DNA of 30,023 nucleotides from a virus. Position 1 is the stretch's first letter. Every line of letters starts with the position of its first letter. The notes beneath the pieces were generated by a model that had not been told where the DNA came from, searched no databases, and was given only the letters and a program-made list of their open reading frames with translations. Shown piece by piece: positions 1 through 30,023 of the stretch. The stretch lies in the IMG/VR virus record IMGVR_UViG_3300037963_001192, positions 1 through 30,023 of that record; one strand, given 5' to 3'. The translations under genes and the position numbers were made by a program.

Positions 1-100
1 ATCTTATCTGCTTTATGGACAGGAACTGATGGTGATAGTAGTAATAATGATGCTGTTCTTACATTGTTTCCATCAGCAGGACAAGATGCTAAAATAGTAA
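1..100. repeat. Left copy of terminal direct repeat (circular assembly overlap)
   Basis: Bases 1-100 match 29924-30023 at all positions except base 99 (A here, G at 30022). The reading frame continues exactly from one end to the other, so this is the overlap expected when a circular or circularly permuted genome is assembled, not a true physical terminal repeat. The mismatch falls in the third position of a valine codon (GTA versus GTG). Confidence 0.85.
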
Positions 101-885
101 TGTATGGAAATGCTGCACTTCAATGGACTATTGGTAATGACAATGATGATAGTGATAAACTAAAGTTTGATGTAGGTACTACTACTGTTGGTGGTGCAAC
201 TAAAATGACACTAGATGACAATGGAAATTTAACACTAGTAGGTGATTTAGCTGTTAATGGTGATGATATAACTACAGATGGTAATATGAATTTAGATAGT
301 GGTGGCTCACTTACATTAGATGCACATGATGGCAACTTTATTGCTAAAAAAGCAGGAACAGAGTTTAGTTCTGCTAATAGTGCTTATGCAGGTATGATAC
401 TTGGCTATACACACTTGACAAGTACTGACAATACAGAAGTATATACACTCACTACATCATTTGATGTAATAGATGCAGATGGAAAAGTAACATTTGTAGC
501 ACCACCAAGTGGAAATGTTGAAATTGAGTTTAGTGTATATAGAGATTCATTTTCATCAAATAAAATAGTATATTTTTCCTTGTCTGATAATGCTACTTAT
601 AATCTAGCATCAGCAGAAATAGGAGATGGCTCATCAAGTATTGAATTAGCTTTTACTCTTGGATTTGACAATGCAGATGAAACAGATGACAGATATTTAA
701 CAGGTAAATTTGTTGTATGTGGTTTAACAGCAGGAACTTCTTACACATATTGGTTAGGAGCAAAAATAAGTACAACATCAGGTTATTTAAGGTGGGGTTC
801 TAGAACAAGCACAGACCCTGATAGAACATATCCACCATTTATAATTAAGGCAACAGCATTACCTGCAAACATACATACTCAATAG
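1..885 (+). CDS. Tail fibre / receptor-binding-like structural protein, C-terminal part (5' end lies at the other end of the window)
   Basis: This is the continuation of the frame that starts at 29672; joined across the circular junction the protein is 378 aa. The part seen here is open from base 1. It contains short repeated beta-rich phrases (LTLVGDLAVNGDD, NLDSGGSLTLDA) and then a C-terminal module with the phrases AGMILGYTHL, YTLTTSFDVIDADGKVTFVAPPSG, DNATYN, DDRY, TYWLGAK and IIKATALPA. That module recurs, from my knowledge, at the C-terminus of fibre-like proteins of marine phages, where a receptor-binding or trimer-forming role is supposed. It precedes two other fibre-like genes. Role as adhesin is inferred. 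The first internal ATG (64) is not the real start. Confidence 0.75.
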   Translation: MLSALWTGTDGDSSNNDAVLTLFPSAGQDAKIVMYGNAALQWTIGNDNDDSDKLKFDVGTTTVGGATKMTLDDNGNLTLVGDLAVNGDDITTDGNMNLDSGGSLTLDAHDGNFIAKKAGTEFSSANSAYAGMILGYTHLTSTDNTEVYTLTTSFDVIDADGKVTFVAPPSGNVEIEFSVYRDSFSSNKIVYFSLSDNATYNLASAEIGDGSSSIELAFTLGFDNADETDDRYLTGKFVVCGLTAGTSYTYWLGAKISTTSGYLRWGSRTSTDPDRTYPPFIIKATALPANIHTQ

Positions 886-893
886 GAGAATAA

Positions 894-1676
894 ATGAGTT
901 TAACAAATAAAACAATAGCATCAAGTTATGGGGATATACTGCAAGTAGATAATAGTGGAAGTGGTAGAACTGCTAATGGAACAAGAGTTAAAGATGGATT
1001 AGGTCAATCTACAGCAATGACTTTAGGAGGCAATAGTATGAACCTAACACCTTCATCTGACAATACCTCTACATTTGCTGTAGAAAAATCTAATGGTGAT
1101 GATTTGCTTGTTGTAGATACTACAAATTCTTTAATTAAAGCAGGAACTACACAAAGCTATGTAAATACACAAATAAAAGAGTTTGGTGTTTTTGATATGT
1201 CACCAACAGCAGACACACATCATCCTATGGTAGCTATGAATGGATTGGATGCAACTGGTAATACAGATTTGGCACTATTATCATTTGGAACAGGAACAGA
1301 CCCAGCAACTACATTGACACTTGCAAGTGGTGCAGAAAACCTTGTGCCTGTGTTGTGGTATGTGCCAGTATCAATAACAATAGATGAAGTTAGAGTTATA
1401 GCTTCAACAGATGCAGCAGACACATTAAACTTTCATTTATTTTCTTATGCAATGGGAACTGGAACTGGCTCAACAGCAGGTGACTTAACAGATGGAACAT
1501 TACTTGCACACAATGGTAGCAGTTTGACTACAGGAGATGACAGAATTACAACAACAACTCTAACAATAGATTCTGCAAACACAGTAGCAGATAGAGTTAT
1601 ATTAGCATTTGTAGAAAATGTAGGTGACACAAATGACATTACAGCACAATTAATAGTAAAATATCATTATCAATAG
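894..1676 (+). CDS. Fibre-like structural protein
   Basis: A 260-aa protein starting 8 bases after the previous stop, with the ribosome site AGGAG at 883-887. Its N-terminus (SLTNKTIASSYGDILQVDNSGSG, then VKDGLG and a SNGDDLLVVDTTNSLIK phrase) is a recurring opening of putative tail-fibre proteins in uncultured marine phages. The rest is rich in Thr, Ser, Gly and Asp, with no Cys and no membrane segment, as expected for a beta-structured virion protein. It sits second in a run of three such genes. A host-recognition or fibre role is inferred from composition, N-terminal motif and position; no enzymatic motif was seen. Confidence 0.6.
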   Translation: MSLTNKTIASSYGDILQVDNSGSGRTANGTRVKDGLGQSTAMTLGGNSMNLTPSSDNTSTFAVEKSNGDDLLVVDTTNSLIKAGTTQSYVNTQIKEFGVFDMSPTADTHHPMVAMNGLDATGNTDLALLSFGTGTDPATTLTLASGAENLVPVLWYVPVSITIDEVRVIASTDAADTLNFHLFSYAMGTGTGSTAGDLTDGTLLAHNGSSLTTGDDRITTTTLTIDSANTVADRVILAFVENVGDTNDITAQLIVKYHYQ

Positions 1677-1685
1677 GAGAAAATT

Positions 1686-3245: not shown

Positions 3246-3250
3246 TGGGA

Positions 3251-3312: not shown

Positions 3313-3351
3313 CCTATACTTTACATGAAAATTTTAAAAAAGAGGTAAATA

Positions 3352-6808: not shown

Positions 6809-9097
6809 ATGGCAGGAAATAGATTTAAACAAGTCATAGAAGTTATAATGAAAGGAGCAGGTAAAACTGCTTCTGATTCCAAAAAGATACAAAAAAGTTT
6901 ACAAGGTGTAGCTAAAGATGCTGCTAAGATAGGTGCTGCTTTTTATGCAGCTAAAGGTGGTATTAATGCTACAAATTCATTTGTGCAATCAGGACAACAA
7001 GTGCAGAATCTAATGCCTTCATTCAAAGCATTAGGCTCACAGATAGATATGACACAAGATGCTTTGAAAAAACTTAAAACTGCTACTGATGGTACTGTTA
7101 GCAGTATGGATTTAATGAAAATGGCTAACCAAGCAATGACATTAGGTGTTATTGGGTCAGAAGATGAAATGGCAAAGCTATTTGATACTGCACAAAGACT
7201 AGGTAAATCACTTGGAGTAGATACAAAAGATGCTGTTGATTCACTTGTAACAGGTATGGGTAGACAATCTATTATGATGCTTGACAACTTAGGTATTATA
7301 GTTGATACACAAAAAGCCTATGATGATTATGCAGAATCTATAGGTGTAACATCAAAAGAACTTACAGACCAACAGAAAAAAATAGCTTTCAACAATGCAG
7401 CTTTAGAAGCTGCTGAAGAAAAAGTTAGTGTTTTAGGTGATGAAAATAGAACAGCATCTGATGAGTTTGCTAGATTGTCAGCAACAGCAGCAGATTTTGG
7501 AGCAGCTATAGGTGAAAAGGTGTTGCCATTATTAGGAAAAGTTGCAGGTGCAGTAGCTACTGCAATAGAAAAAACATCAGAACTTTTTGGCTTAGAACTT
7601 GATACACCTAGAGAAGATAAAGACACAGAAAGTGATTTTGATAAAGGTAGAAAAAGATTTTTAGAAATTAAAACTATGAATGATGCAAGTATGCAACAAG
7701 CACATATTATAGATTTATTATCTAATGAATGGTCTGCTTTTGGAAATAATATTGATAAATCACAAGTTACAATGGAAGATTTGCAAGTTATATTTGATGG
7801 AACAGGTAAATCATTAAGAGATATGAAAATTGAATTAGATGCTCTAGGAAAAAGTCCTGAAGAATATGATAAAGATACAATCAAAGAAATAGTAACAGAT
7901 AGTGAAAAATTAATGGCAACCTTAGCACTTGCACCTATAGGTGTGTTTAATAAATTTATGGGTGATATAGGGAAAAGTTCAGATGGAGCTGTTAATAAAA
8001 TTACAAGTTTGGGTGATAAGGCTCTTGATGCTTTTACAGGTATTTTAGCACTTACTCCTGGAACTGATGTCTTTGTAGATTATGCTAGAACATTTAGTGC
8101 AAATGTAGATGTTACAACAGAAAAATTTAAAGAACAAATAGAAATAACACAAAAAGCAAAAAAAGAGCAAGAAGAACTTACTGCTTTAATGCAAGAATAT
8201 GGTATAGGTGAATTTGGTGGACTAAATGTGACTTTGACAGCATATTCACAATGGGTAGAAGAACAAGAAAAGGCTATTGAGCAAGAACAATTACAATCAG
8301 AATGGAATCAAAAACTTATAGATGATAACAGAGAACTTGCAATGTCTATGGGCTTAGTAAGTGATGAACAAAAAACATTTGATGAATTATATAAAGAATT
8401 TGCAGACACACAACAAGAAGTATTAGACCAAAGACAAAGAGAACAAGATTTAATTGACAATCTTGTAGTTATGCAACCTGAATTAGCAGAGCAAATGGGT
8501 CTAATGCATTCAATGCAACTAGAAGAATTAGAAACAGAAAAAGAACTAGCAGAATTAAAAGAAAAAGCAGAAAAAGCAGATAAAGAGGCACATGAAAGCC
8601 AAATAAAAAGGCTAAAAGAAAAACAAAAAATGAATACTACAGCACTAGGAATAGCTTCTAATTTAATTGGATTGAATGAAAAAAATGCAAAAGCTGTTGG
8701 TGCTATACAAGCTGCACAAGCACTTGTAGATGCTTATTATGCAACACAAGTATCATTTAAACAAGCACAAGAAAATCCTATAACAATATCAAATCCTGCT
8801 TATCCATACATTGTAAGTGCTGCAACTTTAGCACAAGGATTGGCTACAGCAAATCAAGTAGCTAGTAGGGCTGCTGCTGAAGGTATGAATGAAATAGTCA
8901 CAGAGCCTACTTTGATTTTAGCAGGTGAGGAAGGTGCAGAGTATGTTAACATAGAGCCTACACAAAATGAAGGTGAAGGAATGGGGAATGGTTCACAAAT
9001 AATTTTTCAAGGAAATGTTTTAAGTAAAGACTTTATAGAGGATGAGGCTATACCTATGATAAGAGATGCTGTTAGGAGAGGTAGTGTTTTATCATGA
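6809..9097 (+). CDS. Tape measure protein
   Basis: A 762-aa protein that sets tail length. It starts on the base after the previous stop. The N-terminal 200 residues (KQVIEVIMKGAGKTASDSKKIQKSLQ, then a helical region with GVDTKDAVDSLVTGMGRQS and MMLDNLGII) are typical of tail-length tape measure proteins. Residues 440-620 are highly charged with Glu/Gln/Lys and long helical coiled-coil character. The C-terminus has the frequent tape-measure ending (EIVTEPTLILAGEEGAEYVNIEP). At the usual 1.5 A per residue this predicts a tail of roughly 110 nm. No peptidase or lysozyme domain was recognised. The last bases overlap the next start (ATGA). Confidence 0.85.
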   Translation: MAGNRFKQVIEVIMKGAGKTASDSKKIQKSLQGVAKDAAKIGAAFYAAKGGINATNSFVQSGQQVQNLMPSFKALGSQIDMTQDALKKLKTATDGTVSSMDLMKMANQAMTLGVIGSEDEMAKLFDTAQRLGKSLGVDTKDAVDSLVTGMGRQSIMMLDNLGIIVDTQKAYDDYAESIGVTSKELTDQQKKIAFNNAALEAAEEKVSVLGDENRTASDEFARLSATAADFGAAIGEKVLPLLGKVAGAVATAIEKTSELFGLELDTPREDKDTESDFDKGRKRFLEIKTMNDASMQQAHIIDLLSNEWSAFGNNIDKSQVTMEDLQVIFDGTGKSLRDMKIELDALGKSPEEYDKDTIKEIVTDSEKLMATLALAPIGVFNKFMGDIGKSSDGAVNKITSLGDKALDAFTGILALTPGTDVFVDYARTFSANVDVTTEKFKEQIEITQKAKKEQEELTALMQEYGIGEFGGLNVTLTAYSQWVEEQEKAIEQEQLQSEWNQKLIDDNRELAMSMGLVSDEQKTFDELYKEFADTQQEVLDQRQREQDLIDNLVVMQPELAEQMGLMHSMQLEELETEKELAELKEKAEKADKEAHESQIKRLKEKQKMNTTALGIASNLIGLNEKNAKAVGAIQAAQALVDAYYATQVSFKQAQENPITISNPAYPYIVSAATLAQGLATANQVASRAAAEGMNEIVTEPTLILAGEEGAEYVNIEPTQNEGEGMGNGSQIIFQGNVLSKDFIEDEAIPMIRDAVRRGSVLS

Positions 9098-10956
9098 TAG
9101 ATTTGCCTACAATATTTAAAAATGACATACAAGGAAACACAACCTATCTAACTCCACTTATTATAATAAATGATAGAATATATTTATCTACAAAAAAAAT
9201 AAAATTTGATGACAATATATATATGCCTTTTTTAAAATCTATAGGCAATATAAGTGAGTCAGTAGATATTAATAGCAGAAAATTTAAAATATCAGATTCA
9301 ACAATAACATTTTACAATTATAGATATGATAATAAAAATCTAATGGACAAACTTTTAGATGGTGAAATATTTAATAGCAAAATACAGGTTTTTTATAAAT
9401 CACAAAATGCTAAATCTTTAAATGATTGTTTAAGAGTTTATTCAGGATATGTAAAAGATATTACAGAAAATAATGACACATTAAGAATTAGTTCAGAAGA
9501 CCAAACTGAAATTACATTAGGTAAGGAAATCCCAAGGAAAAGAACAAGTGCATCTGAAGATTTGCCACAAAAACATAGGTCACAATATATTCCTATTGTA
9601 TATGGCATTCTAGGGAAAGCACCTGTTGTATATGATTTACTGGAAGATGATAATGCAAATTTAAAAATTACAAGTGACACATATTATATAAGAGGTGTAG
9701 ACAATTTAAAAATGTTTGACAATGATGCTTATGCAGATGTAAGAGAAGAAGCTAGACTATTTGATGGACAAGTAGATGGCACTATATTTAAAAAAATAAC
9801 AAACAAGCAATGGGAAACTAAAGGTGATTATATTGTTATAGAAAAACATACTTACTCTGATAATATAGAAGATGAAAACACAATATTAACATCAGAAGGA
9901 AGGGAAGGGTCACCATTAGCCTTTGATATGGCTGAAATTAGGCAATATACATACTTAAATCACACTTCTAGCAGTCACCAACAGTATGTTAGATTAGATG
10001 GTGGTGATGATGAAACAGCTATTGTAAGTTTAACCTCATATAAAGATATGGATATAAGTTCAGGTGTGCCTGTTGGTAGCAATCCATCATTTAACACAAA
10101 AAGTGGTATATATATAGCTATGCCTCAAAGTTCTGTATTAGACAATGCCTTAGCAACTGAAGGTGGTGTTATACCTATAAAACAAAATAGAGAGTCTTTT
10201 GGTGAAGAAGGTGAATTTGAGAATTTGTTTGGCATTGTAAATTTTAATTTTGAAACACAAGAAAACTTTGTTGGTGCTAGTGATATTGTTACAACCTTGC
10301 TTGAAGATAATTTAGAAGATGAAAAAGATTTTCTAGGTATATGTACACCCAAAAATGGAACACAAAGTTGTTATGGTGCATCATCTGTTTTGGATGGATT
10401 TAGTGGTAATCCAATGTTTGCCCAACTTTATTGGCAATTAGAGGCAACAGACAGATTAGCTTTTCATATATCATATTCTGCTAATGAAGATTATGAAACT
10501 GAAGTAGATACATATTATAATATAAACAGGTATCACCCAAATAGTCAGCCTTATTTACCAGTCAATACTAAAAATGTTGCCCAAAACAGTTTTCAAATGG
10601 GTTTAAGAGTTTATGATGATGGAAATTGGGTTTTGCCTGATTCATTACATGGTGGCTATTATCTATATTTTTATTTCCAAAATTTGGCTGTTGAAAGAGT
10701 GGCAGTAGTAAAAGACTTTTCTAAGAAAAAATTATTTGCAACTGTAGTAGGAAGAATGGATAATTCAGATTTAAGATATACAACTAATCTTTCAACACAA
10801 ACACCATATCAAGGCACACAATTAAATAATTCTATGCAAAGAACACTTACACCTGCAACTACTACACAGCAACAGGCAAGGAAAAAGAAATCACCTGTTA
10901 AAAAAGTTACTGCACCTAGTAAAAATATAAAAAAAACAAATAAAAGAGGTTATTAA
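9094..10956 (+). CDS. Tail tip / distal tail protein
   Basis: A 620-aa protein coupled to the tape measure gene by an ATGA overlap. The N-terminal third has the order seen in many siphovirus distal tail proteins: a PLIIINDRIYLSTKKIKFDDNIYMPFLKSIGNISESVDI segment, a strand set SKIQVFYKS, a YSGYVKDI phrase and a QYIPIVYGILGKAPVVYD motif. The C-terminus is a low-complexity basic tail after about residue 570 (QQQARKKKSPVKKVTAPSKNIKKTNKRGY). The gene is placed between the tape measure and a very large tail protein, so it should be part of the tail tip or baseplate hub. Assignment is by position and pattern; no enzyme motif seen. Confidence 0.6.
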   Translation: MIDLPTIFKNDIQGNTTYLTPLIIINDRIYLSTKKIKFDDNIYMPFLKSIGNISESVDINSRKFKISDSTITFYNYRYDNKNLMDKLLDGEIFNSKIQVFYKSQNAKSLNDCLRVYSGYVKDITENNDTLRISSEDQTEITLGKEIPRKRTSASEDLPQKHRSQYIPIVYGILGKAPVVYDLLEDDNANLKITSDTYYIRGVDNLKMFDNDAYADVREEARLFDGQVDGTIFKKITNKQWETKGDYIVIEKHTYSDNIEDENTILTSEGREGSPLAFDMAEIRQYTYLNHTSSSHQQYVRLDGGDDETAIVSLTSYKDMDISSGVPVGSNPSFNTKSGIYIAMPQSSVLDNALATEGGVIPIKQNRESFGEEGEFENLFGIVNFNFETQENFVGASDIVTTLLEDNLEDEKDFLGICTPKNGTQSCYGASSVLDGFSGNPMFAQLYWQLEATDRLAFHISYSANEDYETEVDTYYNINRYHPNSQPYLPVNTKNVAQNSFQMGLRVYDDGNWVLPDSLHGGYYLYFYFQNLAVERVAVVKDFSKKKLFATVVGRMDNSDLRYTTNLSTQTPYQGTQLNNSMQRTLTPATTTQQQARKKKSPVKKVTAPSKNIKKTNKRGY

Positions 10957-13900: not shown

Positions 13901-14105
13901 GCTTTTTAATTATATAGGTGAATTAGAAATAACAAGTGTCAAATTTGTAAATTGGAATAAAGAAATTTATTATCCTAATTACAGAACTTTGAACAGAAAC
14001 TTTTGGAAAAGAAGCACAAATAATTGGAACTCAGATGGAAGAAAACCTGAAGAAATAGAAGATATAAAACTTATACATAAAAAAATAGCAAAGACTAAAG
14101 TTTAG
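10956..14105 (+). CDS. Large tail tip protein with dockerin-like calcium-binding module
   Basis: At 1049 aa this is the largest gene and probably the central tail-tip or host-contact protein. It overlaps the preceding stop by one base. Residues about 1-530 are a beta-rich region; an acidic linker follows (about 500-530, many Asp/Glu); then residues 540-830 resemble a tail hub segment (SQSCKSIPVFSNDKFSFFNLKN, YNLELGDLLEFDKMLLGKKIYGEKYVLDTM). Residues 855-912 contain two calcium-binding loops of dockerin type: D858, N860, D862, Q864, D866, D869, and D888, D890, D892, V894, S896, D899, each followed by a helix beginning with L and ending about 10 residues later. A C-terminal beta domain of about 130 aa follows. 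In cellular systems dockerins bind cohesins; here a calcium-stabilised structural fold is the simpler reading. Confidence 0.7.
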   Translation: MSRYYLTWVKHTDGTYQETNEVNIFGNNLLAIVRKGSDLLNESDAQQLNYDDFIDYQSRDLQDAVLDTGLTKIYIPAEGVSLMLGTGNMLGDNWNLLAEHPDYAYGQNGREPYNDIRLINSNIAEDVGDDIYLKWKPNLLSNPLENINDCFGVPFHFRVTPYTNNLNYQSQTIDGNDFIEIPNSDVVDYSFDVDNTYVKYVIINLRCQDLFSPYYTNNLWGYGIEGFSANVNARWIQGFRDIAEGNNVYVDAITNGINSTIYDGNVNIQDMTVNIEQSALESGFSCMGIGMSLIMHHAGEADTNMWSIGDFNKSEIINQGFQEGHINIKTNLLYESDIGKDFSPIVTSVNSFTNNIPVGQSANGDITIFFENYSEIAEIIIFDNTDFSLEGTPSDSVQDLTDELDSIGFNYIDNSANYGSVEIGSQDSLQETPFGASFQAESNSSITIPFTYTAHSIGQDSFTIYVKLLNVILDDNGDIFETEYIWYELANINANCVDADLEDEEDYVIDDNEEDENFDNPAVDDDYEPDPDRTIIQNPIGIMFHLAEQELGYKKGIDAEKIDEARINHDNWRMDFSVNDVIEGKDLFNQISQSCKSIPVFSNDKFSFFNLKNTYRGGTEYYTDGTKENIITIKEKDVINYQFTRTDIENIATKIDYRYYFDYGLETYVEAHEIDANDIYKYHVSTTYGKLLNFDPLDSNNYVNYYGLKYDEPNTPNHIDTTKIFEDAYIIHNQTALKNANFMLGWYYNVHNQISLTLPLKYYNLELGDLLEFDKMLLGKKIYGEKYVLDTMEDMPIRCGQYILPLFIINSIKKDLNKVEIEATQLHHIGSEHLNYKGQIYPPVKEVLNGADGGLFGDINGDGQVDINDLIMLSDLVLSEAEYNPVADLDGDGVVSVQDLVEWVDMFFAENQRSSEPNATNASINYGNGSVFCKSNGEIAAFEMTFNGSFKGVNCLGDGWQMKIRNNKMLIWSNGRTPLSERLFNYIGELEITSVKFVNWNKEIYYPNYRTLNRNFWKRSTNNWNSDGRKPEEIEDIKLIHKKIAKTKV

Positions 14106-19945: not shown

Positions 19946-20257
19946 ATGGCTAGACCTAAAAAATATGATATTGATACAAAGCAAGTAGTTAAGTTAGCTT
20001 CCTATGGTTGCACTATAAGAGAAGTGGCTAATTTTTTTGGATGCTCTGAAGATTTAATTAAAAAGAGTTATTCCCAATTTATTACAAAAGGGAAAGATGA
20101 AGGAAAAATAAGATTAAGAAAACTGCAATGGACAGCTGCTGAAAAAGGAAATGTTCCTATGCTTATATGGTTAGGTAAACAAGTATTAGGACAAACAGAC
20201 AAACAAGAACTGACAGAAGTAAAACCTATAGATGAAATAGTATTTGATGGCATCTAG
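19946..20257 (+). CDS. Terminase small subunit
   Basis: A 103-aa protein that recognises phage DNA for packaging. Residues about 13-60 form a helix-turn-helix with the pattern VKLASYGCTIREVANFFGCSEDLIKKSYSQFITKG, typical of small terminase subunits, followed by LRKLQWTAAEKGNVPMLIWLGKQVLGQTD, a signature phrase of phage small terminases. It lies immediately before TerL and overlaps it by 11 bases. There is no AGGAG at its start; the sequence CACCTATGG precedes translation, so coupling with the RusA gene ending 14 bases upstream is possible. Confidence 0.8.
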   Translation: MARPKKYDIDTKQVVKLASYGCTIREVANFFGCSEDLIKKSYSQFITKGKDEGKIRLRKLQWTAAEKGNVPMLIWLGKQVLGQTDKQELTEVKPIDEIVFDGI

Positions 20258-21533
20258 CTTAACATTACACAAAGAAGATTATTTTCCACACCAATGGGAT
20301 TTCATAAAAAGTGGCTTTGTTGGTGAAAATAAAGATAAGTCTATAGTGGCAATGGTAGCTGGAGTAGGAAGTGGAAAAACATGGTCATTCCTGAGAAAAA
20401 CATTTATCAACCACATATCAAGAAAGAACAAAGATGGCATAAGTAATGGTTGGATTATCTACCCTACATACTCTTTAGCAGAAGAAGTATTTATACCACC
20501 ATTTTTAGATATACTGACAAGCAAAGGAATCCCTTATGATTACAATGTATCCAAACACACTATAAAAACTGCTTATGGAAATATAAAAATATTTCAAATG
20601 GTTAAGCCACAATCTATAGTAGGGGTCAGCTTAAGCTACTGTGGATTTGATGAATATGACATTAATAGTGAAAAATATTGTGAATTAGCATTTAATAAAG
20701 CTGTAGGTAGAATGAGAGATTGTGAAAACCCTGAGATATATATATGCACAACACCTGAAGGAATGAAATATACCTACACCTTAATGGTAGAAAAAGATGA
20801 TGATAATAAATTTTTAGTTAGGGGAAAAACTACAGATAATGTATATTTGCCTAAGACTTATCTTAAATTATTAGAAGATAACTATGATGAAAAACTTTTA
20901 AAGGCTTACAGAGATGGTCAATTTGTTAACTTACAACAAGGTCAAACATACTACCAGTTCAACAGAGATGAAAATGTTCAGACAGTTCAATACAACAGAG
21001 CATTACCTGTTAGACTGGGAATTGACTGGAATGTTGACCCTGAATGTGCAGTCTTATTTCAACTTTATGAAAGACAACCCCAAATAAGAGTTTTTGATTG
21101 TATAGCCTTAACACATGGTGGTAGTGGTGACCTACTCACAGAAAGAATGGTTAATACAATTAAGAATAAATACCCAAATAGTGAATATGTAGCATATCCT
21201 GATGCAACTGGACATAAAAGAGGCTCTAGTGCAATGTATAGTGATATTGACTTATTAGTTAAGGGTGGATTTAAAGTAAAAGCAATGAAAACAAATCCAC
21301 TTGTTATTGACAGAGTTAATGCAGTAAACAAAGCACTTCAAGGTAATCTTGTTATTGACCCTAGTTGTAAAGACTTAATTCAGGATTTAGAAAAAACATC
21401 AAACAAAGAAGGAACTAGAGAAATAGACAAGAGTAACAAAAACTTAACACATATGTCTGATGCACTAGGATATGCAGTACATTGGGAATTACCAATAATT
21501 AAACCAACATTGGGGAGCATAAGAAGGATATGA
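20247..21533 (+). CDS. terL: Terminase large subunit
   Basis: A 428-aa packaging motor with ATPase and nuclease domains. The ATPase domain has Walker A GVGSGKT at residues 39-45 and Walker B LSYCGFDE ending in D135-E136. The RNase H-like nuclease domain has candidate metal ligands D260 (LGIDWNVDPE), D319 (AYPDATG) and D405 (HMSDALGYA). Length is normal for a phage TerL. The frame contains a TTG three bases earlier (20244), but ATG at 20247 is the likely start, inside the end of the small subunit gene. The stop overlaps the portal start (ATGA). It should dock on the portal and translocate DNA. Confidence 0.93.
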   Translation: MASSLTLHKEDYFPHQWDFIKSGFVGENKDKSIVAMVAGVGSGKTWSFLRKTFINHISRKNKDGISNGWIIYPTYSLAEEVFIPPFLDILTSKGIPYDYNVSKHTIKTAYGNIKIFQMVKPQSIVGVSLSYCGFDEYDINSEKYCELAFNKAVGRMRDCENPEIYICTTPEGMKYTYTLMVEKDDDNKFLVRGKTTDNVYLPKTYLKLLEDNYDEKLLKAYRDGQFVNLQQGQTYYQFNRDENVQTVQYNRALPVRLGIDWNVDPECAVLFQLYERQPQIRVFDCIALTHGGSGDLLTERMVNTIKNKYPNSEYVAYPDATGHKRGSSAMYSDIDLLVKGGFKVKAMKTNPLVIDRVNAVNKALQGNLVIDPSCKDLIQDLEKTSNKEGTREIDKSNKNLTHMSDALGYAVHWELPIIKPTLGSIRRI

Positions 21534-22885
21534 TACCAAACATAAGTGAACTATTAGTATTAAATGCTAAGTATGATGCAAGTCAAAAAAGAAAAGATAT
21601 GTGGAAGTCAGCAAGGTTAGATGCCTTAGAGTATTACAAAGGTAGAAGTTTGCCTTATACAATGGAATATTTTGATTTAACATTGTTTGACAAAGTACCT
21701 GCTGCAAACATTAATGTGACTAAAAGAATTATAGATAGAATATCATTAGTGTATATGAAGCCACCTAAAAGAATTTATACTAAAGAAGAAACACCATTAC
21801 TATTTCATCATAAAGACTTTAAGATGCAAAGAGCAGAAAGAATGACTAACTTGCTTGATGGTGTGCTTATCAAAGTTTGTATGAGATATAATGATAAGAA
21901 TGAGCAGAAAATTGAGTATGATATTATACATGATTATGAGCCTATGTTTGGTGATGACCCATTAACTCCAATAGCATTTACTTATCCTATAGCTACAAAA
22001 GATACAGTAGTTGATGATACAGCAAAGCTATATGTGTACTGGGATAAAGATAACACATTTACTTATGATGAGAATGGTAAGATATATACAGATGAAGATA
22101 ATCCTGATATGATTAATCCATATGGTGTATTGCCTTTTGTTGAGTGCTGGAGAGATGGAAAACCTGAGTCTAGTTATATGGACACAGACCCATCTACTGA
22201 TTTAATACAAACAAATACTATGATTAATGTTGCAGAAACAAATAAAAATGCAAACATCATGTTTCAATCATTTGGCTATATCTATGTTAATGGCTCACAG
22301 ATAGAAAAAGATAGTATGGAAGTAGGAGCAGACAAAATTTCTTTTTTAGGAATTGATGGTCAAATGAACATTGTAACACCACCTAACACAGTAGATTCTA
22401 TAACATCATCAATCACAACAGCTTACAAGATGTTAGCACAGAACTACCATATAGATATAAACTTTGTAGAAGGAACTACAGCACAATCAGGTGTTGCTCT
22501 CAAGCTAAGAAACCAAGAACTGCAAGATGAAAGAATATCAGATGTTATTAAGTGGAGAGAAGTAGAAAAGAAAATATTTGAACTTGAAAGACTTATAATG
22601 GCTGTAGATTTTGGAAAAGATGCAGGTGAGTTAGAACAAATTGACTTTGAAGAAACTATGGAAGTATTAAGTGACCAAGAGCAAAGAGATAAATGGGAAT
22701 GGGAGTTATCTAATGGACTTATAGACAGAGCAGATATACTTATGCAGAAAGACCCTGATAGATTCCCTGATAGAGATACTGCTGAAGATTACTTATTTGA
22801 AAGAAGTGATGCAGACTTAGCAGATGATGATGAAGAAGTAGAAGAAGAAAACACATTACTATCACAATTAACTAGACCTGTATAA
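21530..22885 (+). CDS. Portal protein
   Basis: A 451-aa protein that forms the DNA entry ring of the capsid. The position next to TerL with an ATGA overlap, the length and the pattern fit SPP1-like portal proteins: LDALEYYKGRSLPY near the N-terminus, NINVTKRIIDRISLVYMKPPKR, a central wing, YGVLPFVEC, DLIQTNTMINVAETNKNANIMFQSFG, and SGVALKLRNQELQDERISDVIKWREVEKKIFELERLI as the long crown-side helix. The C-terminus is acidic (DADLADDDEEVEEEN), a feature seen in many portals. No unusual changes were noted. Confidence 0.88.
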   Translation: MIPNISELLVLNAKYDASQKRKDMWKSARLDALEYYKGRSLPYTMEYFDLTLFDKVPAANINVTKRIIDRISLVYMKPPKRIYTKEETPLLFHHKDFKMQRAERMTNLLDGVLIKVCMRYNDKNEQKIEYDIIHDYEPMFGDDPLTPIAFTYPIATKDTVVDDTAKLYVYWDKDNTFTYDENGKIYTDEDNPDMINPYGVLPFVECWRDGKPESSYMDTDPSTDLIQTNTMINVAETNKNANIMFQSFGYIYVNGSQIEKDSMEVGADKISFLGIDGQMNIVTPPNTVDSITSSITTAYKMLAQNYHIDINFVEGTTAQSGVALKLRNQELQDERISDVIKWREVEKKIFELERLIMAVDFGKDAGELEQIDFEETMEVLSDQEQRDKWEWELSNGLIDRADILMQKDPDRFPDRDTAEDYLFERSDADLADDDEEVEEENTLLSQLTRPV

Positions 22886-23187
22886 TGGCAGAATATCAAG
22901 GCAGAAAAGTAACACTAGACAAACCTACTAGAATCACTAAAGGTCAAGCAGGATATGGAAGAAAGAAGTTCCAAGTCTATGTTAAAGATGGTGACAAAGT
23001 TAAAAAGGTAATGTTTGGTGACCCTAACTTAACTATAAAAAGATTTTCAGATGAAAAAAGAAGAAGTTTTAGAGCAAGACATAAGTGTGATTCTAACAAA
23101 CCTACAGACAAAACAAAGGCTAGATACTGGTCATGTAAGTTTTGGCAATCAAGAAAGTCAGTATCTGATTTATTAAGTGGGAGTTGA
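22885..23187 (+). CDS. Conserved small head-region protein
   Basis: A 100-aa basic protein overlapping the portal stop by one base (TAATG). It carries the phrases VTLDKPTRI, KKFQVYVKDGDKVKKVMFGDPNL and SFRARHKCDSNKPTDKTKARYWSCKFW. This combination recurs in marine phages near portal and prohead genes, in T4-like cyanophages within a prohead-core protein. The two cysteines (of RHKCD and WSCKFW) and conserved histidine suggest a metal-binding or stabilised core. A head-assembly role is inferred from neighbours and family recollection; mechanism unknown. Confidence 0.6.
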   Translation: MAEYQGRKVTLDKPTRITKGQAGYGRKKFQVYVKDGDKVKKVMFGDPNLTIKRFSDEKRRSFRARHKCDSNKPTDKTKARYWSCKFWQSRKSVSDLLSGS

Positions 23188-23923
23188 TGGCTTAGTGTCA
23201 GACCAATTATTTATAGAACAAAATGCAGAAACTATTGCAGATATTATTCTTGAAGTTCAAGAGAGAACTATAGCAGAACTTTATGCACTAAAAGGTAACA
23301 AATCAGCAGAAGAATTTATAAGATTTATAGAAAGACTTAATGTTGAGGAAGTAATATTTGCAAAGGCTGAAAATGCTATAACTATATTTGAAAACTCTCA
23401 TGCAGGTATGCTACAATCTATACAAGGCTTTTCTGACCTATCAGAAGAAACACTACAAGCACTTGTAAACTATAACACAAACTCTTTATTGTCACAACTA
23501 GATAATATGGCTCAAGTAGTTAAAAGAGAAGTAATAAATGGCATTATTGCTGGGTCACCAACACAATTTGTATTAGAAAAAGTTAGAGGTCAAGGTGCAT
23601 TGAGCAGAGGACAGCTTTTAACACTTATTAACACATCAATGAATGAGTATAGTAGAAATGTTACTAAGCTAATGATAGATAAAATGCCTGATGAAACTAA
23701 ATATGTCTATATTGGTGCATTAGATGAAAAAACAAGACCAATATGTTTACAGATGATGTCAGCAGACAAATTAACAAGGGCTGAAATAGAAGCAAGATTT
23801 GGTAGCAAAGTATTTACAGAAGGTGGAGGATATAATTGCAGACACAAATGGGAAATATCTGTGCAGGATAAGTTTGGACATGACCCTCAAGGTGCTAAGA
23901 AAAGACTGGAGGACTTAGACTAA
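23177..23923 (+). CDS. Minor head protein, Mu gpF-like
   Basis: A 248-aa protein starting at GTG 23177, inside the preceding gene; another GTG at 23195 is possible and no ATG is available in the N-terminal region. The C-terminal part has the family signature: YIGALDEKTRPICLQM, then LTRAEIEARFG and GGYNCRHKWE, with the cysteines and histidine of the Mu gpF-like domain. The N-terminal half is helical (LFIEQNAETIADIILEVQERTIAELYALKG), including VLEKVRGQGALSRGQLLTLINTSMNEYSRNV. In related phages this protein sits inside the procapsid near the portal and may be injected or needed for head morphogenesis. Confidence 0.75.
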   Translation: MGVDGLVSDQLFIEQNAETIADIILEVQERTIAELYALKGNKSAEEFIRFIERLNVEEVIFAKAENAITIFENSHAGMLQSIQGFSDLSEETLQALVNYNTNSLLSQLDNMAQVVKREVINGIIAGSPTQFVLEKVRGQGALSRGQLLTLINTSMNEYSRNVTKLMIDKMPDETKYVYIGALDEKTRPICLQMMSADKLTRAEIEARFGSKVFTEGGGYNCRHKWEISVQDKFGHDPQGAKKRLEDLD

Positions 23924-25307: not shown

Positions 25308-26201
25308 ATGGCAAATACAGATGTAGGTGTTGCAGCAGGTGGTTTAGGAAAAACCATTGCAGCAGCAATAGTTCAATTTAATAAAGCAGCAGTTACTCCT
25401 TCTACTATCTCAATGGTAGCAGCACAAAAAGGAAGTAATGTTGTACAATTCCCAGTTTATAGCAAATTAGGTGTTTCAGATGTTACTAATGAAGCAACAG
25501 GTGATGAAGATACAGAAGTAGCAGCAACAAGTATTACAACTGCTGCAACTAATGTAGAGATATTAAGAAATCACATTAATGCTAGAGTTACTGACTTAGC
25601 AGCACATGGTAATGCAGATGCCTTAATGATAAATGCAGGACAAGTTCTAGGTAATGCAGTAGCAGCAGAATTTGATGCAAACATTTGTGCATTATTTGAT
25701 GGATTTGCAACAAGCAAAGGAAGTGATGATGGTCTAAGGTTTTTAGATATAATGGATGCAGTAGCTTCTTTGGAAACTAATGATGCTCCTAGACCTTATG
25801 CAGCAGTTTTACATCCACAACAAATGTATGGCTCTTTTGGTCTATCTAATGAATTAGCAACCACAGCAACAAATTCTAGTGTTGGTGCATTTGCACATGG
25901 TGGTGCTGGATTTGTAGGTGACCAATTCTATAGAGCAGGTTTTGTTACTAGCATAGCAGGTATTGACTTCTTCACTTCACCACAAGTAATTGATGGTGAT
26001 ACAGGTAGAAAGAAAGGTGCTATCTACTCTAAAACTGCTTTAGGTGCAGGTTACATGGACTTTGGTGCAGGTAACTTCATAGAGTTAAGAACTGAAAGAA
26101 ATGAGTTAGGTGCTTCTACTAATTTAGTTGCTAATGGATATTGGGCAGCTTCTGAGTTAGTTGATTTACATGGTGTAGAAATACATACTGAAATCTCATA
26201 A
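25308..26201 (+). CDS. Major capsid protein
   Basis: A 297-aa protein in the right place after the scaffold. It has a regular capsid-like order: an N-terminal helical part (LGKTIAAAIVQFNKAAVTPSTISMVAAQKGSNVVQFPVYSKL), an extended loop (DTEVAATSITTAATNVEILRNHINARVTDLAAHGNAD), the helix AGQVLGNAVAAEFDANICALFDGF, and the phrases RPYAAVLHPQQMYG, GIDFFTSPQV and GAIYSKTALGAGYMDFG, which recur in HK97-fold capsid proteins of marine phages. Alanine-rich with only one cysteine. No protease gene was identified, so maturation may not involve cleavage. A hairpin terminator follows 11 bases after the stop. Confidence 0.85.
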   Translation: MANTDVGVAAGGLGKTIAAAIVQFNKAAVTPSTISMVAAQKGSNVVQFPVYSKLGVSDVTNEATGDEDTEVAATSITTAATNVEILRNHINARVTDLAAHGNADALMINAGQVLGNAVAAEFDANICALFDGFATSKGSDDGLRFLDIMDAVASLETNDAPRPYAAVLHPQQMYGSFGLSNELATTATNSSVGAFAHGGAGFVGDQFYRAGFVTSIAGIDFFTSPQVIDGDTGRKKGAIYSKTALGAGYMDFGAGNFIELRTERNELGASTNLVANGYWAASELVDLHGVEIHTEIS

Positions 26202-26990: not shown

Positions 26991-27394
26991 TGTCACTTAT
27001 AGATAACATTAAAATATCAGAAGGTTTTAGGTCTAAAGTGTATAAATGCACAGAAGGCTATGACACAATAGGTTATGGATTTGCTATAAAAGATTTAGAA
27101 CTTGATGAAGATATTTGTGATATGATATTAGAAAGGAAGGTAGCTAAATTAGTTGAAAGGCTAGAAAAGAACTTACCATACCTTCCCAGTTTACCAAAAG
27201 ATGCACAAGATGTCCTAATAGAGATGGCTTACCAAATGGGTGTTTCAGGCTTACTTAAATTCAAGAAAACACTTATGTATGTAGAAAGTAAAGACTACAA
27301 AGATGCAAGTGTGGAGATGTTGGATAGCAGATGGGCTAAACAAACACCAAACAGAGCAAAGAAGCTATCTGATATAATGGCTAGTGCAGGATAG
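26990..27394 (+). CDS. Phage lysozyme, GH24 (T4-type endolysin)
   Basis: A 134-aa muramidase that cleaves peptidoglycan between MurNAc and GlcNAc. The active-site triad follows the family rule E-8aa-(D/C)-5aa-T: E11, C20 and T26 in ISEGFRSKVYKCTEGYDTIGYGF. Cysteine replaces the aspartate of T4 lysozyme, a known natural form. The C-terminal helical domain is recognisable (DAQDVLIEMAYQMGVSGLLKFKKTL, then SRWAKQTPNRAKKLSDIM). There is no signal peptide, so it needs a holin to reach the wall, in line with the downstream membrane proteins. Its end overlaps the phosphoesterase gene by 11 bases. Confidence 0.9.
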   Translation: MSLIDNIKISEGFRSKVYKCTEGYDTIGYGFAIKDLELDEDICDMILERKVAKLVERLEKNLPYLPSLPKDAQDVLIEMAYQMGVSGLLKFKKTLMYVESKDYKDASVEMLDSRWAKQTPNRAKKLSDIMASAG

Positions 27395-28586
27395 ACTAGC
27401 TTGTCCAAATTGCTTTAGTATACAACTCCACAAGAGTGGTATAGAACATGGTAAGCAAAGATATAGATGTAAGAGATGTAAAAGCAGAACAGTATTTCCA
27501 CTAAGGGAAGCAGAGTTAGAAGTTGTTAGAGAAAATGTAAGATACAAAAAACAACAACAAAAGGCTCAAGACATAAACAGGGTTGAAAGAAAAGCCTTTA
27601 GGGAATTTGCAAGAATTGAAAATGCTGTAGTAGAATACAGCAAAGAATTAAAACAGCTTTTTGAAAATTATAAACTACACACAGAAACTAAGAAGCATAG
27701 AGGTGGTAGCAAAGCAGTAGGTGTAATACAATTTAGTGATGTACACTTCAATGAGTTAGTAGACATACAAGGAAACAAGTATGATTTTGAAGTTGCCTCT
27801 AAAAGATGCAAGTATTTTGTTAGCCAAGCTAAGAAATACTTCAAGATGGCTAAAATAAAGAGCATAGTGGTGGCATTTACAGGAGATTTACTAAATTCTG
27901 ATAGAAGGTTAGATGAACTGCTAAATCAAGCTACAAACAGGGCTAAGGCTACTTTTTTATCAGTTGACATTATGCAACAAGTTTTAATGGATTTAAATCA
28001 AGACTTTAATGTTTCAGTTGCAAGTGTGGTAGGGAATGAAGGTAGAGCAAATAAAGAATTAGGTTGGAGTGATGCAGTAGCTACAGATAACTATGACTAC
28101 ACTATATACAACTGCCTTAGATATTTATTTAAAGATAGCAATATTACTTTTATTGATGGTGACCCTAGTGAGTTAGTTGTAAATGTAGCAGGACAAAACT
28201 TGTTAATGTTACATGGACATGGAGGACTTAGAGGTGGTATAGAGAAAGCTATAAATCAAATTATGGGTAGATATTCAATAAAGGGAATAAATATAGATTA
28301 TGCAATATTTGGTCATGTTCATTCTGCTAGAGTAGGAGATAATTATGGAAGAAGTTCAAGCATGGTAGGTGCTAATGATTACTCTGAAAAAGCATTAAAT
28401 TTAACAGGCAGGGCAAGTCAAAATTGCTATGTGTTTTATGAGAATGGCAATAGAGATGGAATAAAAATTGATTTACAAAATACAGATTGTGAAGGATATA
28501 AAATTGATAAAGAATTGGAAGCATATAATGCAAAATCAGCACACAAGACTAACAAACATGAAACAATCATAAAAATAGTTGTTTGA
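27384..28586 (+). CDS. Zinc-ribbon fused to calcineurin-like metallophosphoesterase
   Basis: A 400-aa two-domain protein. Residues 7-32 form a zinc ribbon (C7, C10, C29, C32) in the phrase CPNCFSIQLHKSG then QRYRCKRC, like that of IS1 InsA and other transposase N-termini. A charged helix (45-100) links it to a metallophosphoesterase from 112: D119-x-H121 (SDVHF), G167-D168 (FTGDLL), G217-N218-E219 (usual form is GNH), H277 and H279 (LHGHGG), and G310-H311-x-H313 (FGHVH). Most metal ligands are present. Such enzymes act on DNA or nucleotides; the zinc ribbon suggests nucleic acid. It lies between lysozyme and membrane genes, unusual for a DNA enzyme. Confidence 0.75.
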   Translation: MQDRLACPNCFSIQLHKSGIEHGKQRYRCKRCKSRTVFPLREAELEVVRENVRYKKQQQKAQDINRVERKAFREFARIENAVVEYSKELKQLFENYKLHTETKKHRGGSKAVGVIQFSDVHFNELVDIQGNKYDFEVASKRCKYFVSQAKKYFKMAKIKSIVVAFTGDLLNSDRRLDELLNQATNRAKATFLSVDIMQQVLMDLNQDFNVSVASVVGNEGRANKELGWSDAVATDNYDYTIYNCLRYLFKDSNITFIDGDPSELVVNVAGQNLLMLHGHGGLRGGIEKAINQIMGRYSIKGINIDYAIFGHVHSARVGDNYGRSSSMVGANDYSEKALNLTGRASQNCYVFYENGNRDGIKIDLQNTDCEGYKIDKELEAYNAKSAHKTNKHETIIKIVV

Positions 28587-28590
28587 CTCC

Positions 28591-28629: not shown

Positions 28630-28634
28630 TTAAA

Positions 28635-28784: not shown

Positions 28785-29092
28785 TGGAAAATTTTCTAGT
28801 AATCCTTGAGCAGTATGGGATTCCAATATGTGTTGCAATAGCATTTGGATTTTTTATTTGGAAACAAAATAAGTTTATACAAGATGAACTTATGGAGGAT
28901 TTAGAAGAAAGGTTTAAAAGATTAGAAGGAATATTAATTAAATTAATTGACCAACAAAAGAAAATGCAGATAGAGCAGAAAGGAATAGAGAAAAGTTATG
29001 AAGGTTTAGTTAGTATTATATCTAAGCTAATGAGTAAGAATGGTGGCAATGGATTTAAAAGCAAGTTAGAAAAGTTTTTAAAAGATAATTAA
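28784..29092 (+). CDS. Membrane-anchored coiled-coil protein, BhlA/UviB-type holin or spanin candidate
   Basis: A 102-aa protein with an N-terminal membrane segment (about residues 9-26, EQYGIPICVAIAFGFFIWK), then a long helix of heptads (LMEDLEERFKRLEGILIKLIDQQKKMQIEQKGIEKSYEGLVSIISKL). This layout is that of BhlA/UviB-like holin proteins and also of i-spanins (Rz). It overlaps both neighbours by one base (TAATG). As no Rz1-type lipoprotein follows, the BhlA-like reading is somewhat favoured. The cluster points to lysis. Confidence 0.55.
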   Translation: MENFLVILEQYGIPICVAIAFGFFIWKQNKFIQDELMEDLEERFKRLEGILIKLIDQQKKMQIEQKGIEKSYEGLVSIISKLMSKNGGNGFKSKLEKFLKDN

Positions 29093-29253
29093 TGATAAGT
29101 ATAAAAGATAGGAAAGAATTAAATAGGTTAAGACAAGAAGTAGATGTAAAGATAAATAGTTTTGGTTTGAGATTAAGAAGATTAGAAAATGAAATACTAA
29201 TGTTAAAAACACAAAACAATGAAATTAAAAATTTAATTAAAGGAGAAGAATGA
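29092..29253 (+). CDS. Small coiled-coil protein
   Basis: A 53-aa highly charged helical protein (RKELNRLRQEVDVKINSFGLRLRRLENEILMLKTQNNEIKNLIKGEE) that begins within the previous stop codon and ends one base before the next start. No membrane segment is seen, but Leu/Ile heptads suggest a dimeric or trimeric coil that could pair with the coil of the preceding protein. Lysis accessory is the contextual guess. It would be missed by size filters of many gene finders. Confidence 0.5.
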   Translation: MISIKDRKELNRLRQEVDVKINSFGLRLRRLENEILMLKTQNNEIKNLIKGEE

Positions 29254-29254
29254 T

Positions 29255-29527
29255 ATGGATTGGTTAGCAATGACTTTAGGAGCAAGTGGTGGTGGTGCAG
29301 TATTATGGATTTTAAAAAAGATACCTAATGAAAAAATATGTGCAGTAGTAGAAGGTGGCTTTGAAAAGCTAGGTGTTCTAATGACAGTTGGCTTAACTAA
29401 GTTTTGGGCAACTAAAAAACTATGGAATAAAACAATAGAGCCTTACTTTATAGACTTAGTAGACAATGTGGTAGGTGGTGCATTAAGAGGCTTAATCAAA
29501 GGTTTAAGGTCAGATAACAAGAAGTAA
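29255..29527 (+). CDS. Hypothetical protein of the lysis/tail border
   Basis: A 90-aa protein with AGGAG just upstream. N-terminal residues 3-20 (WLAMTLGASGGGAVLWIL) are hydrophobic, possibly a short membrane insertion; the C-terminus LTKFWATKKLWNKTIEPYFIDLVDNVVGGALRGLIKGLRSDNKK is a conserved-looking phrase that I have met in marine phages, with amphipathic helices. A membrane-associated role in lysis or in the virion base is possible. It is coupled to the next gene (TAATG). Confidence 0.55.
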   Translation: MDWLAMTLGASGGGAVLWILKKIPNEKICAVVEGGFEKLGVLMTVGLTKFWATKKLWNKTIEPYFIDLVDNVVGGALRGLIKGLRSDNKK

Positions 29528-29679
29528 TGAAGATTTGGTTAGCAAAGCAAGTAGCAAAAAAAGGTATAATACCTTGCATATTATGGGTATTAGGGTTGTT
29601 TGCAAAATTAACTAAGTCTAAAAAAGATGATAAGGCAATAGCTAAAATTAAGGAGTTTGTTAAGACTTTAGATGAGTAA
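29527..29679 (+). CDS. Small hypothetical protein, partly hydrophobic
   Basis: A 50-aa protein starting inside the previous stop and ending 8 bases inside the fibre gene. It has a hydrophobic centre (GIIPCILWVLGLFAKL, about residues 13-28) flanked by basic segments, and a charged C-terminal helix (DDKAIAKIKEFVKTLDE). A single membrane contact is likely. It closes the membrane-protein cluster. No family recognised. Confidence 0.5.
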   Translation: MKIWLAKQVAKKGIIPCILWVLGLFAKLTKSKKDDKAIAKIKEFVKTLDE

Positions 29680-30023
29680 AGAACTTAAAATAGAGAATCA
29701 GTTAGACACACACCTAAAACAGATTAAGATAGGTGAAACAGCTACACCTATAGAAATATCAACTGAAAAAATCAGAATGAATAAAGATTTAATCTGTGTT
29801 GAGAATATTGAAGTTGAAGGTGGTTTTAATTTAAATAGCAGACAAATACTTTTTCCTGACCAAATAGTTTTAGAAGCTAGTGAAGCACAAGGTGGCTTGT
29901 CATTAGAAGCTACAGGTTTTTCTATCTTATCTGCTTTATGGACAGGAACTGATGGTGATAGTAGTAATAATGATGCTGTTCTTACATTGTTTCCATCAGC
30001 AGGACAAGATGCTAAAATAGTGA
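29672..30023 (+). CDS. Tail fibre / receptor-binding-like structural protein, N-terminal part (continues at base 1)
   Basis: This is the 5' end of the 378-aa fibre-like protein whose remainder is at 1-885. The first 60 residues (LKIENQLDTHLKQIKIGETATPIEISTEKIRMNKDLICVENIEVEGG) are a known opening in marine phage fibre genes, presumably the virion-attachment part. AAGGAG lies about 20 bases upstream inside the preceding gene, and the start overlaps that gene by 8 bases. The frame has no stop up to the window end and joins exactly with base 1 when the 100-base overlap is merged. Confidence 0.75.
   Translation, partial: MSKELKIENQLDTHLKQIKIGETATPIEISTEKIRMNKDLICVENIEVEGGFNLNSRQILFPDQIVLEASEAQGGLSLEATGFSILSALWTGTDGDSSNNDAVLTLFPSAGQDAKIV
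29924..30023. repeat. Right copy of terminal direct repeat (circular assembly overlap)
   Basis: Same sequence as bases 1-100, with one change at 30022 (G instead of A). See the left copy. The unique genome is therefore about 29,923 bases if the overlap is collapsed. Confidence 0.85.

What the first reader, a model, noticed from the sequence alone, without database searches (positions are those of the whole stretch)
1..30023. No CG dinucleotide anywhere in the genome
Reading the whole window I found no CG on either strand, including across codon boundaries. With the base composition seen, several hundred would be expected. All arginines use AGA or AGG and no codon NCG is used. Such total absence goes beyond usual codon bias and indicates strong selection (a host defence that targets CpG) or a mutational process such as CpG methylation with deamination. 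It is also a clean signature for linking the phage to a host.
Basis: partly seen in the sequence, partly recalled or inferred. Interest (0 to 1): 0.87.

Follow-up and report, generated by a model that had tools for sequence, protein, structure and literature searches.

The report
Phage genomes with no CG dinucleotides
This complete ~30 kb marine phage genome, like those of some relatives and of a second, unrelated phage family, contains not one CG dinucleotide where about 700 are expected, and the pattern fits selection to escape a bacterial defence that reads just the two bases CG rather than mutation or codon bias.

Summary
Confirmed: 0 CG in 30,023 bases (719-757 expected), coding and non-coding. 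Where the third codon base is C or T, C is used 0 of 1,450 times before G but 24-32% before A, T or C; all 292 arginines are AGA/AGG.

It is not unique. Of 35 near-complete genomes (window and relatives), 6 have exactly 0 CG, one has 1 and one has 5; others range up to 0.67 of expectation. CG absence changes at least 11 times on the terminase tree. A second, unrelated phage family is almost uniformly CG-free (45 contigs, 506,506 bases, 0 CG, ~11,900 expected) with mostly normal GATC, CTAG, AGCT and GTAC counts. Ribosome-binding sites suggest hosts in different phyla.

Deamination is disfavoured: arginine CGN becomes arginine or lysine, hardly ever His/Gln/Cys/Trp. The only CG-bearing close kin in family 2 include a lineage with a homologue of T4 dCMP hydroxymethylase, a cytosine-modifying enzyme; the CG-free genomes lack it. 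Best reading: elimination of the target of a host DNA-level defence recognising unmodified CG, a two-base analogue of restriction-site avoidance.

The enzyme and host are unidentified; the cassette link rests on one lineage. Prokaryotic CpG methyltransferases are reported only from Mollicutes; I know of no CG-specific restriction enzyme.

The parts
1..30023 (.). Whole phage genome without a single CG dinucleotide (also no GATC, no GGCC)
1..100 (+). 100-base end repeat, copy 1 (one mismatch to copy 2): contig is a closed circle / complete genome
29924..30023 (+). 100-base end repeat, copy 2
19946..20257 (+). Terminase small subunit (phrog_309); 33-49% identical to pelagiphage proteins
20244..21533 (+). 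Terminase large subunit; used to find and order relatives
21530..22885 (+). Probable portal protein (by position only; no profile match)
   Evidence: inference
23177..23923 (+). Minor head protein (Mu F-like)
25308..26201 (+). Major capsid protein; nearest isolates are pelagiphages and lake phage DSL-LC06, 27-31% identity
26990..27394 (+). Phage lysozyme (PF00959)
27384..28586 (+). Exonuclease/phosphoesterase (phrog_284)
6809..9097 (+). Tail tape measure protein (phrog_3779)

Best explanation
The genome has been purged of CG by selection to escape a host DNA-level defence that recognises the bare dinucleotide CG in unmodified phage DNA (most likely a restriction-type activity whose host-side protection is cytosine methylation of CG). 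Each CG is a cleavage or recognition site; phages lacking C-modification persist only if every copy is gone, and this can be done almost entirely by synonymous change (NCG to NCA/NCT, NNC|G to NNT|G, CGN to AGR). SHOWN: exact absence; selection-like fate of codons; repeated gain or loss on the tree; an unrelated phage family with the same absence and mostly normal levels of the main tetranucleotide palindromes. SUPPORTED BY ONE LINEAGE: a cytosine-modifying cassette in CG-bearing close kin of family 2. INFERRED: that the agent is a host nuclease, that it acts on DNA, and that its site is CG itself rather than a set of longer CG-containing sites.
For: (1) Exact zero in 14 near-complete genomes of two families: 429,835 bases, 10,406 CG expected. 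(2) C-ending codons vanish only before G (0/1450; family 2 0/1317, 0/1363 and so on), so this is not codon or tRNA bias. (3) Codon fates against CG-bearing relatives: CGN to Arg 43, Lys 8, Ile 1; NNC|G retained 0/121 versus 49/161 before A; family 2: CGN to Arg 26 of 32, NNC|G retained 0/135. (4) The terminase tree needs 12 changes of the zero-CG label, at least 11 forced by well-supported branches. (5) Number of the 10 NCGN contexts eliminated per genome is bimodal: 9 genomes with all 10, none with 9, the rest 2-8; independence would give about 7e-6 per genome. (6) Family 2: 48 of 52 contigs at or below about 0.013 of expectation and 45 exactly zero, from about 42 metagenomes or genomes, while GATC, CTAG, AGCT and GTAC are near expectation in nearly all long genomes; its CG-bearing kin at 81-82% TerL identity have 0.47-0.62 with all contexts present in the one examined: all or none. 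(7) G050/G051 of those kin carry a cassette with a homologue of T4 dCMP hydroxymethylase (best PDB hit 1b49, E=2.2e-16, with the Asp of the FGFxND motif), a PLP enzyme and MazG; no thymidylate-synthase homologue in the other 52 genomes tested. (8) The same clade eliminates classic 4-bp restriction-type palindromes all-or-none (GATC, CTAG, AGCT, CATG, CTNAG). (9) CG is the only word of 2-3 bases ever eliminated in the clade.
Against: No CG-specific restriction endonuclease is known to me, and a two-base cutter would need the host to protect every CG. Host unknown; no host gene identified. In clade 1 the intermediate genomes (0.04-0.13 of expectation) lose CG contexts unevenly (CCGN, GCGC, TCGA first; RCGA last), which a single CG agent does not predict without an added context preference or extra 4-bp systems. 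The modification cassette rests on one phage lineage (G050 and G051 are identical over it; G049, also CG-bearing, has no cassette in its 18 kb fragment). CG being palindromic, RNA-level targeting cannot be excluded by strand.
Confidence: 0.62

Rival explanations
1. Pile-up: the phages avoid many separate 4-6 bp restriction sites that contain CG (CCGG, GCGC, ACGT, TCGA, CCGC, ACGC and others) from an R-M-rich host population, and zero CG is the sum.
For: Single CG-containing tetramers are eliminated individually in CG-bearing relatives; clade 1 genomes also avoid many non-CG sites.
Against: ACGA and GCGA are almost never lost alone; all ten contexts vanish together in 9 of 35 genomes (independence ~7e-6); family 2 lost all CG while keeping the main CG-free palindromes, and its CG-bearing kin keep every context.
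Confidence: 0.15
2. Methylation-dependent defence: some hosts or phage MTases methylate CG (as M.SssI/M.MpeI do), and other hosts carry type IV nucleases that cut methyl-CG (McrA, Mrr, PsuGI-like), so phages moving between them gain by having no CG at all.
For: Type IV enzymes are known with very short methyl-CG sites, e.g. PsuGI BB5mCGD, and E. coli restriction of DNA modified at CG (PMC12707154); some CG-bearing relatives encode DNMT3-like C5-MTases. It needs no unknown two-base cutter.
Against: CG-bearing kin of family 2 carry a dCMP hydroxymethylase homologue, which would put modified C everywhere and be a liability against many type IV enzymes, though further hypermodification could shield it; CG methyltransferases in prokaryotes are reported only from Mollicutes (PMC9465063).
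Confidence: 0.13
3. Mutation rather than selection: methyl-CG deamination, or a CG-specific DNA deaminase, turned every CG into TG/CA.
For: TG/CA is raised (1.27 of expectation).
Against: GC (1.32) and AG/CT (1.16) are raised as well; TG/CA in CG-bearing relatives is nearly as high; arginine CGN is replaced by AGR/Lys, not by His/Gln/Cys/Trp; NCG goes to NCA and NCT roughly as ordinary codon usage would have it; mutation bias does not give an exact zero in 14 genomes. A CG deaminase used as a defence would still impose selection against CG and is not excluded in that form.
Confidence: 0.04
4. Composition or translation effect: AT-rich codon use, missing arginine tRNAs, or adaptation to a CG-poor host genome.
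For: All CGN and NCG codons are absent; AT-rich; phages of comparable habitats here have CG at 0.3-0.6 of expectation.
Against: The codon-join test (C before G 0/1450) and non-coding zero are not codon effects; 158 pelagiphage-kin and 79 cyanophage-kin contigs contain no CG-free member (minimum 0.22); sister genomes at 81-82% TerL identity flip from 0 to about 0.5.
Confidence: 0.04
5. RNA-level targeting: a host RNase or sensor that recognises CpG in transcripts, like vertebrate ZAP.
For: CG absence by itself cannot tell RNA from DNA, since CG is palindromic and almost all sequence is transcribed.
Against: Avoidance of dsDNA palindromes in the same genomes and the probable cytosine-DNA-modifying cassette in CG-bearing kin point to DNA; no such bacterial system is known to me.
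Confidence: 0.02

Closest known systems
Restriction-site avoidance/elimination in phages (Rusinov et al. 2018, PMC6286503)
   Same: Complete elimination of a palindromic site from dsDNA phages by mostly synonymous change, all-or-none between relatives; that paper calls sites below 0.1 of expectation eliminated.
   Different: The site is two bases (one per ~40 bases here) instead of an ordinary R-M recognition site; 600-830 expected sites are missing per 30 kb genome; the cognate system is unknown.
CpG methyltransferases M.SssI / M.MpeI of Mollicutes (PMC9465063, PMC5944983)
   Same: Sequence specificity CG, the host-side modification that a CG restriction system would need.
   Different: Described only in Mollicutes; the M. 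agalactiae enzyme is an orphan and the host CG ratio is 0.46-0.5, not zero. None found in the window.
Type IV methyl-CG restriction (McrA, Mrr, PsuGI)
   Same: Very short CG-centred target.
   Different: Needs methylated CG; would punish modified phages; not tested here.
T4-type cytosine hypermodification (dCMP hydroxymethylase)
   Same: CG-bearing kin of family 2 carry a homologue; an alternative way to escape cytosine-directed restriction.
   Different: The CG-free phages lack it and use sequence purging instead.
Pelagiphages HTVC111P/112P/026P/202P
   Same: Nearest isolates by terminase and capsid (26-29% aa), part of the gene order, use of Shine-Dalgarno sites.
   Different: CG at 0.26-0.44 of expectation; none of 158 contigs of HTVC010P/HTVC112P kin is CG-free.

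Membership tests
Phage elimination of a restriction-type site | Site below 0.1 of expectation with more than 15 expected | tested here: met
   CG 0 of 719-757
Phage elimination of a restriction-type site | Palindromic (acts on double-stranded DNA) | tested here: met
   CG is its own reverse complement; other eliminated words in the clade are mostly palindromes
Phage elimination of a restriction-type site | Elimination by selection on synonymous sites, not composition | tested here: met
Phage elimination of a restriction-type site | Host carries an R-M system for that site | not testable with these tools
   No host genome reachable; no relatives in genome contigs
Phage elimination of a restriction-type site | Site length of ordinary type II sites (4 bp or more) | tested here: not met
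   Two-base word; all ten NCGN contexts absent
Methylation/deamination CpG depletion | CG lost mainly to TG/CA, with loss of CGN arginine to His/Gln/Cys/Trp | tested here: not met
Phage-encoded DNA modification | Phage carries DNA MTase or base-modifying enzyme | tested here: not met
   PF00145 and PF00303 absent from the window by six-frame search; no MTase among the window proteins scanned with Pfam/PHROGs
HTVC111P-type pelagiphages | Close homology of core genes | tested here: inconclusive
   6 of 36 window proteins match these phages at 24-49% identity; distant kin only

The most novel reading that the evidence does not exclude
Marine bacteria of at least two phyla carry an undescribed innate DNA defence whose target is the bare dinucleotide CG, strong enough to drive unrelated phage families to zero CG or to cytosine modification; it would have the shortest recognition word of any restriction-type system known to me.
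Probability: 0.45. Interest if true: 0.93.

Novelty: new variant of a known kind. Interest (0 to 1): 0.84.

Why it matters
A two-base target would occur once every ~40 bases of AT-rich DNA and would be an extreme case of self/non-self discrimination, so the enzyme and the way the host protects itself would be of general interest. Total CG loss shows how far a phage genome can be rewritten synonymously under one selective agent and offers a simple search (CG-free contigs) for finding the hosts and the defence. The all-or-none switch between purging CG and, possibly, modifying cytosine makes an old question, why some phages avoid sites and others modify bases, directly testable.

Tried and rejected
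Host search: terminase and capsid queries in genome contigs found nothing; the genome search does not draw bacterial relatives for a virus record, and an E. coli locus could not serve as a centre. SAR11 as host: nearest isolates are pelagiphages, but no CG-free member among 158 contigs of their kin, so left open. Longer motif around residual CGs in low-CG genomes: none, only enrichment of RCGA. Clustering of residual CGs by recent gene import: they are dispersed. Phage MTases as the switch in clade 1: C5-MTases occur in both low- and high-CG genomes, DNMT3-like ones slightly more often above 0.5 (p=0.04, not corrected, relatedness ignored, and only two of the five were shown to be DNMT3-like by search). 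Structure of the 303-aa cassette protein: single-sequence model useless (pLDDT 35); no family match. Literature: no paper found describing CG-free phage genomes, in an open-access library only. Constant 'avoided' words such as CCNGG and GGNCC are not significant under the codon-shuffle null in the window and were not used as evidence.
Full report
OBSERVATION. The window is a complete circular phage genome (100-base end repeat with one mismatch) with packaging, capsid, tail, lysozyme and recombination genes. It holds 0 CG; 719-757 are expected from base composition. The zero includes 2,146 non-coding bases (36 expected). Codons show how it is done: Arg is AGA 236, AGG 56, CGN 0; NCG codons 0; and, among C/T-ending codons, the third base is C in 24%, 25% and 32% of cases before A, T and C but in 0 of 1,450 before G. 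Keeping the protein and the codon usage fixed and shuffling codons gives 240 CG at codon joins, never fewer than 205 in 200 shuffles.

RELATIVES. Terminase and capsid searches in IMG/VR brought about 170 loci. I fetched 34 long relatives, which with the window give 35 near-complete genomes: exactly 0 CG in six (27-32 kb each), 1 in one, 5 in one, then 0.039 of expectation and upward to 0.67; fragments of kin at 51% terminase identity reach 1.5. Residual CGs are scattered along the genomes. On a terminase tree of 103 rows the label 'below 0.02' needs 12 changes, at least 11 on well-supported branches; the quick tree is of one gene and the genomes are mosaic, so the number is a guide. Contigs from the same metagenome differ (for example 3300030329 holds CG-free and CG-bearing kin), so this is not a property of a data set.

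SELECTION OR MUTATION. Compared with CG-bearing relatives in 36 gene pairs, arginine CGN became Arg 43, Lys 8, Ile 1; NCG became NCA 27, NCT 16, with 12 non-synonymous; NNC before G was kept 0 of 121 times versus 49/161 before A. CG-free genomes have slightly less Arg (3.18 versus 3.50%, p=0.001) and no more Gln, His, Cys or Trp. TG/CA is raised, but so are GC and AG/CT, and TG/CA is nearly as high in CG-bearing kin. This is what selection against CG with synonymous escape gives, and not what deamination gives.

ONE TWO-BASE TARGET OR MANY LONGER ONES. Clade 1 genomes also eliminate classic restriction-type palindromes, all or none and in different sets: GATC, CTAG, AGCT, CATG, CTNAG, GGCC and, among CG words, ACGT, CCGG, GCGC, TCGA, CCGC. 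A pile-up of CG-containing 4-mers is therefore a serious rival. Against it: the number of the ten NCGN contexts eliminated per genome is bimodal, with 9 of 35 genomes at all ten and none at nine, while independence from the other genomes' rates would give about 7e-6 (relatedness ignored); ACGA and GCGA are practically never lost alone; and CG is the only word of two or three bases eliminated anywhere in the clade. For it: the low-CG genomes (0.04-0.07) keep almost only RCGA, which a single CG agent alone does not predict.

A SECOND, UNRELATED FAMILY. Searching with an adenine/N4 methyltransferase carried by a CG-free relative brought in a 15.5 kb contig, L523, with 0 CG that shares essentially that gene alone with clade 1. 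Its terminase is of the Terminase_3 type, and the window's proteins find only faint matches in the family. Of 52 related contigs of at least 4 kb, 48 are at or below about 0.013 of expectation; 45 contigs (506,506 bases, about 11,933 CG expected) have none. The 48 come from about 42 metagenomes or genomes. Eight of ten long genomes (30-33 kb) are exactly zero. In most of these, GATC, CTAG, AGCT and GTAC are near expectation (GATC is absent in G042, CATG is low in G044), so the CG loss stands without a general loss of 4-mers; GCNNGC, CCNGG and, in most, CACTG are also rare. The close kin that do carry CG (81-82% terminase identity) have 0.47-0.62 of expectation, with every context present in G050. 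Nothing lies in between.

A POSSIBLE ALTERNATIVE STRATEGY. The CG-bearing kin G050/G051 carry six adjacent genes missing from the CG-free genomes: DUF6378, an unknown protein, a 303-aa unknown, a PLP enzyme, a thymidylate-synthase homologue and MazG. The synthase homologue's best solved match is T4 dCMP hydroxymethylase (2.2e-16) with the Asp of its FGFxND motif, which in T4 directs the enzyme to cytosine (general knowledge). None of the other 52 genomes tested has a thymidylate-synthase homologue. I read this as cytosine modification in place of CG removal. It is one lineage (G050 and G051 are identical there; G049's fragment lacks the cassette), and the chemistry is not shown.

HOSTS. Shine-Dalgarno-like sites precede 58% of clade 1 CG-free genes and 73% of the window's, like proteobacterial phages (43-71%), but 7% of family 2 genes, close to known flavobacterial phages (6%) and to shuffled sequence (5%). 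Family 2 homologues also point to Bacteroidota phages. So CG-free phages probably infect hosts of at least two phyla. The window's nearest isolates are SAR11 phages and lake phage DSL-LC06, yet kin of two pelagiphage groups (158 contigs) and of cyanophage P-SSP7 (79) include no CG-free member. The host stays open.

MECHANISM. Most likely a host DNA defence recognises CG in unmodified DNA and phages survive either by having no CG or, possibly, by modifying cytosine. Shown: absence, selection, repetition, independence from the main 4-mers in family 2. Inferred: DNA-level nuclease, two-base site, host methylation as self-protection. A methylation-dependent (type IV) defence is a rival I find hard to exclude. 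CpG methyltransferases in prokaryotes are described only from Mollicutes (PMC9465063); I know of no CG-specific restriction enzyme (own knowledge). [quoted passage not shown]

LIMITS. Metagenomic contigs, no host, no culture; sampling by homology, not by CG content; contigs are related, so counts are not independent; the open-access library does not cover subscription journals.

Noticed in passing
window 1-30023: GATC (0/63), GGCC (0/29), CACTG/CAGTG (0/49), GAGAC (0/24), GAGCT (1/44), RCATGY (0/37) and GCNNGC (0/33) are also absent or nearly so; significant under a codon-preserving null.
   Followed up: partly
G002-G034 (loci L203-L268): Whole clade eliminates different sets of palindromes all-or-none (CATG, CTAG, AGCT, CTNAG, GATC); CATG elimination (13 of 27) never coincides with CG absence (0 of 8), Fisher p=0.015 with relatedness ignored.
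   Followed up: partly
L187:1501-2367, L186:1501-2526, L182:1492-2382: Phage C5-methyltransferases in relatives; the first two match eukaryotic DNMT3A/3B best among solved structures (E about 1e-26); the third was not searched.
   Followed up: partly
L673:892-4818: Putative cytosine hypermodification cassette (dCMP hydroxymethylase-like, PLP enzyme, MazG, 303-aa protein of unknown family) in CG-bearing kin of family 2.
   Followed up: partly
L128, L129, L130, L148: Distant terminase kin (about 51% aa) with CG at 1.5 times expectation: the same lineage spans from none to excess.
   Followed up: no
L178 (HTVC010P, NC_020481): SAR11 phage HTVC010P has 0 CTNAG (132 expected) and 0 GGCC (25 expected).
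   Followed up: no
window 10956-14105: Tail-region protein of 1049 aa with a dockerin type I / EF-hand match near its C-terminal part (residues 857-904).
   Followed up: no
L616 (IMGVR_UViG_2786546784_000002), L145 (IMGVR_UViG_2786546419_000005): Two phage contigs come from records numbered like IMG genomes rather than metagenomes, so their hosts may be on record; L616 is CG-free.
   Followed up: no
G047 (loci L670, L671): Distant kin of family 2 (58% TerL) with CG at 1.64 of expectation but CTAG, AGCT, CATG and CTNAG eliminated.
   Followed up: no
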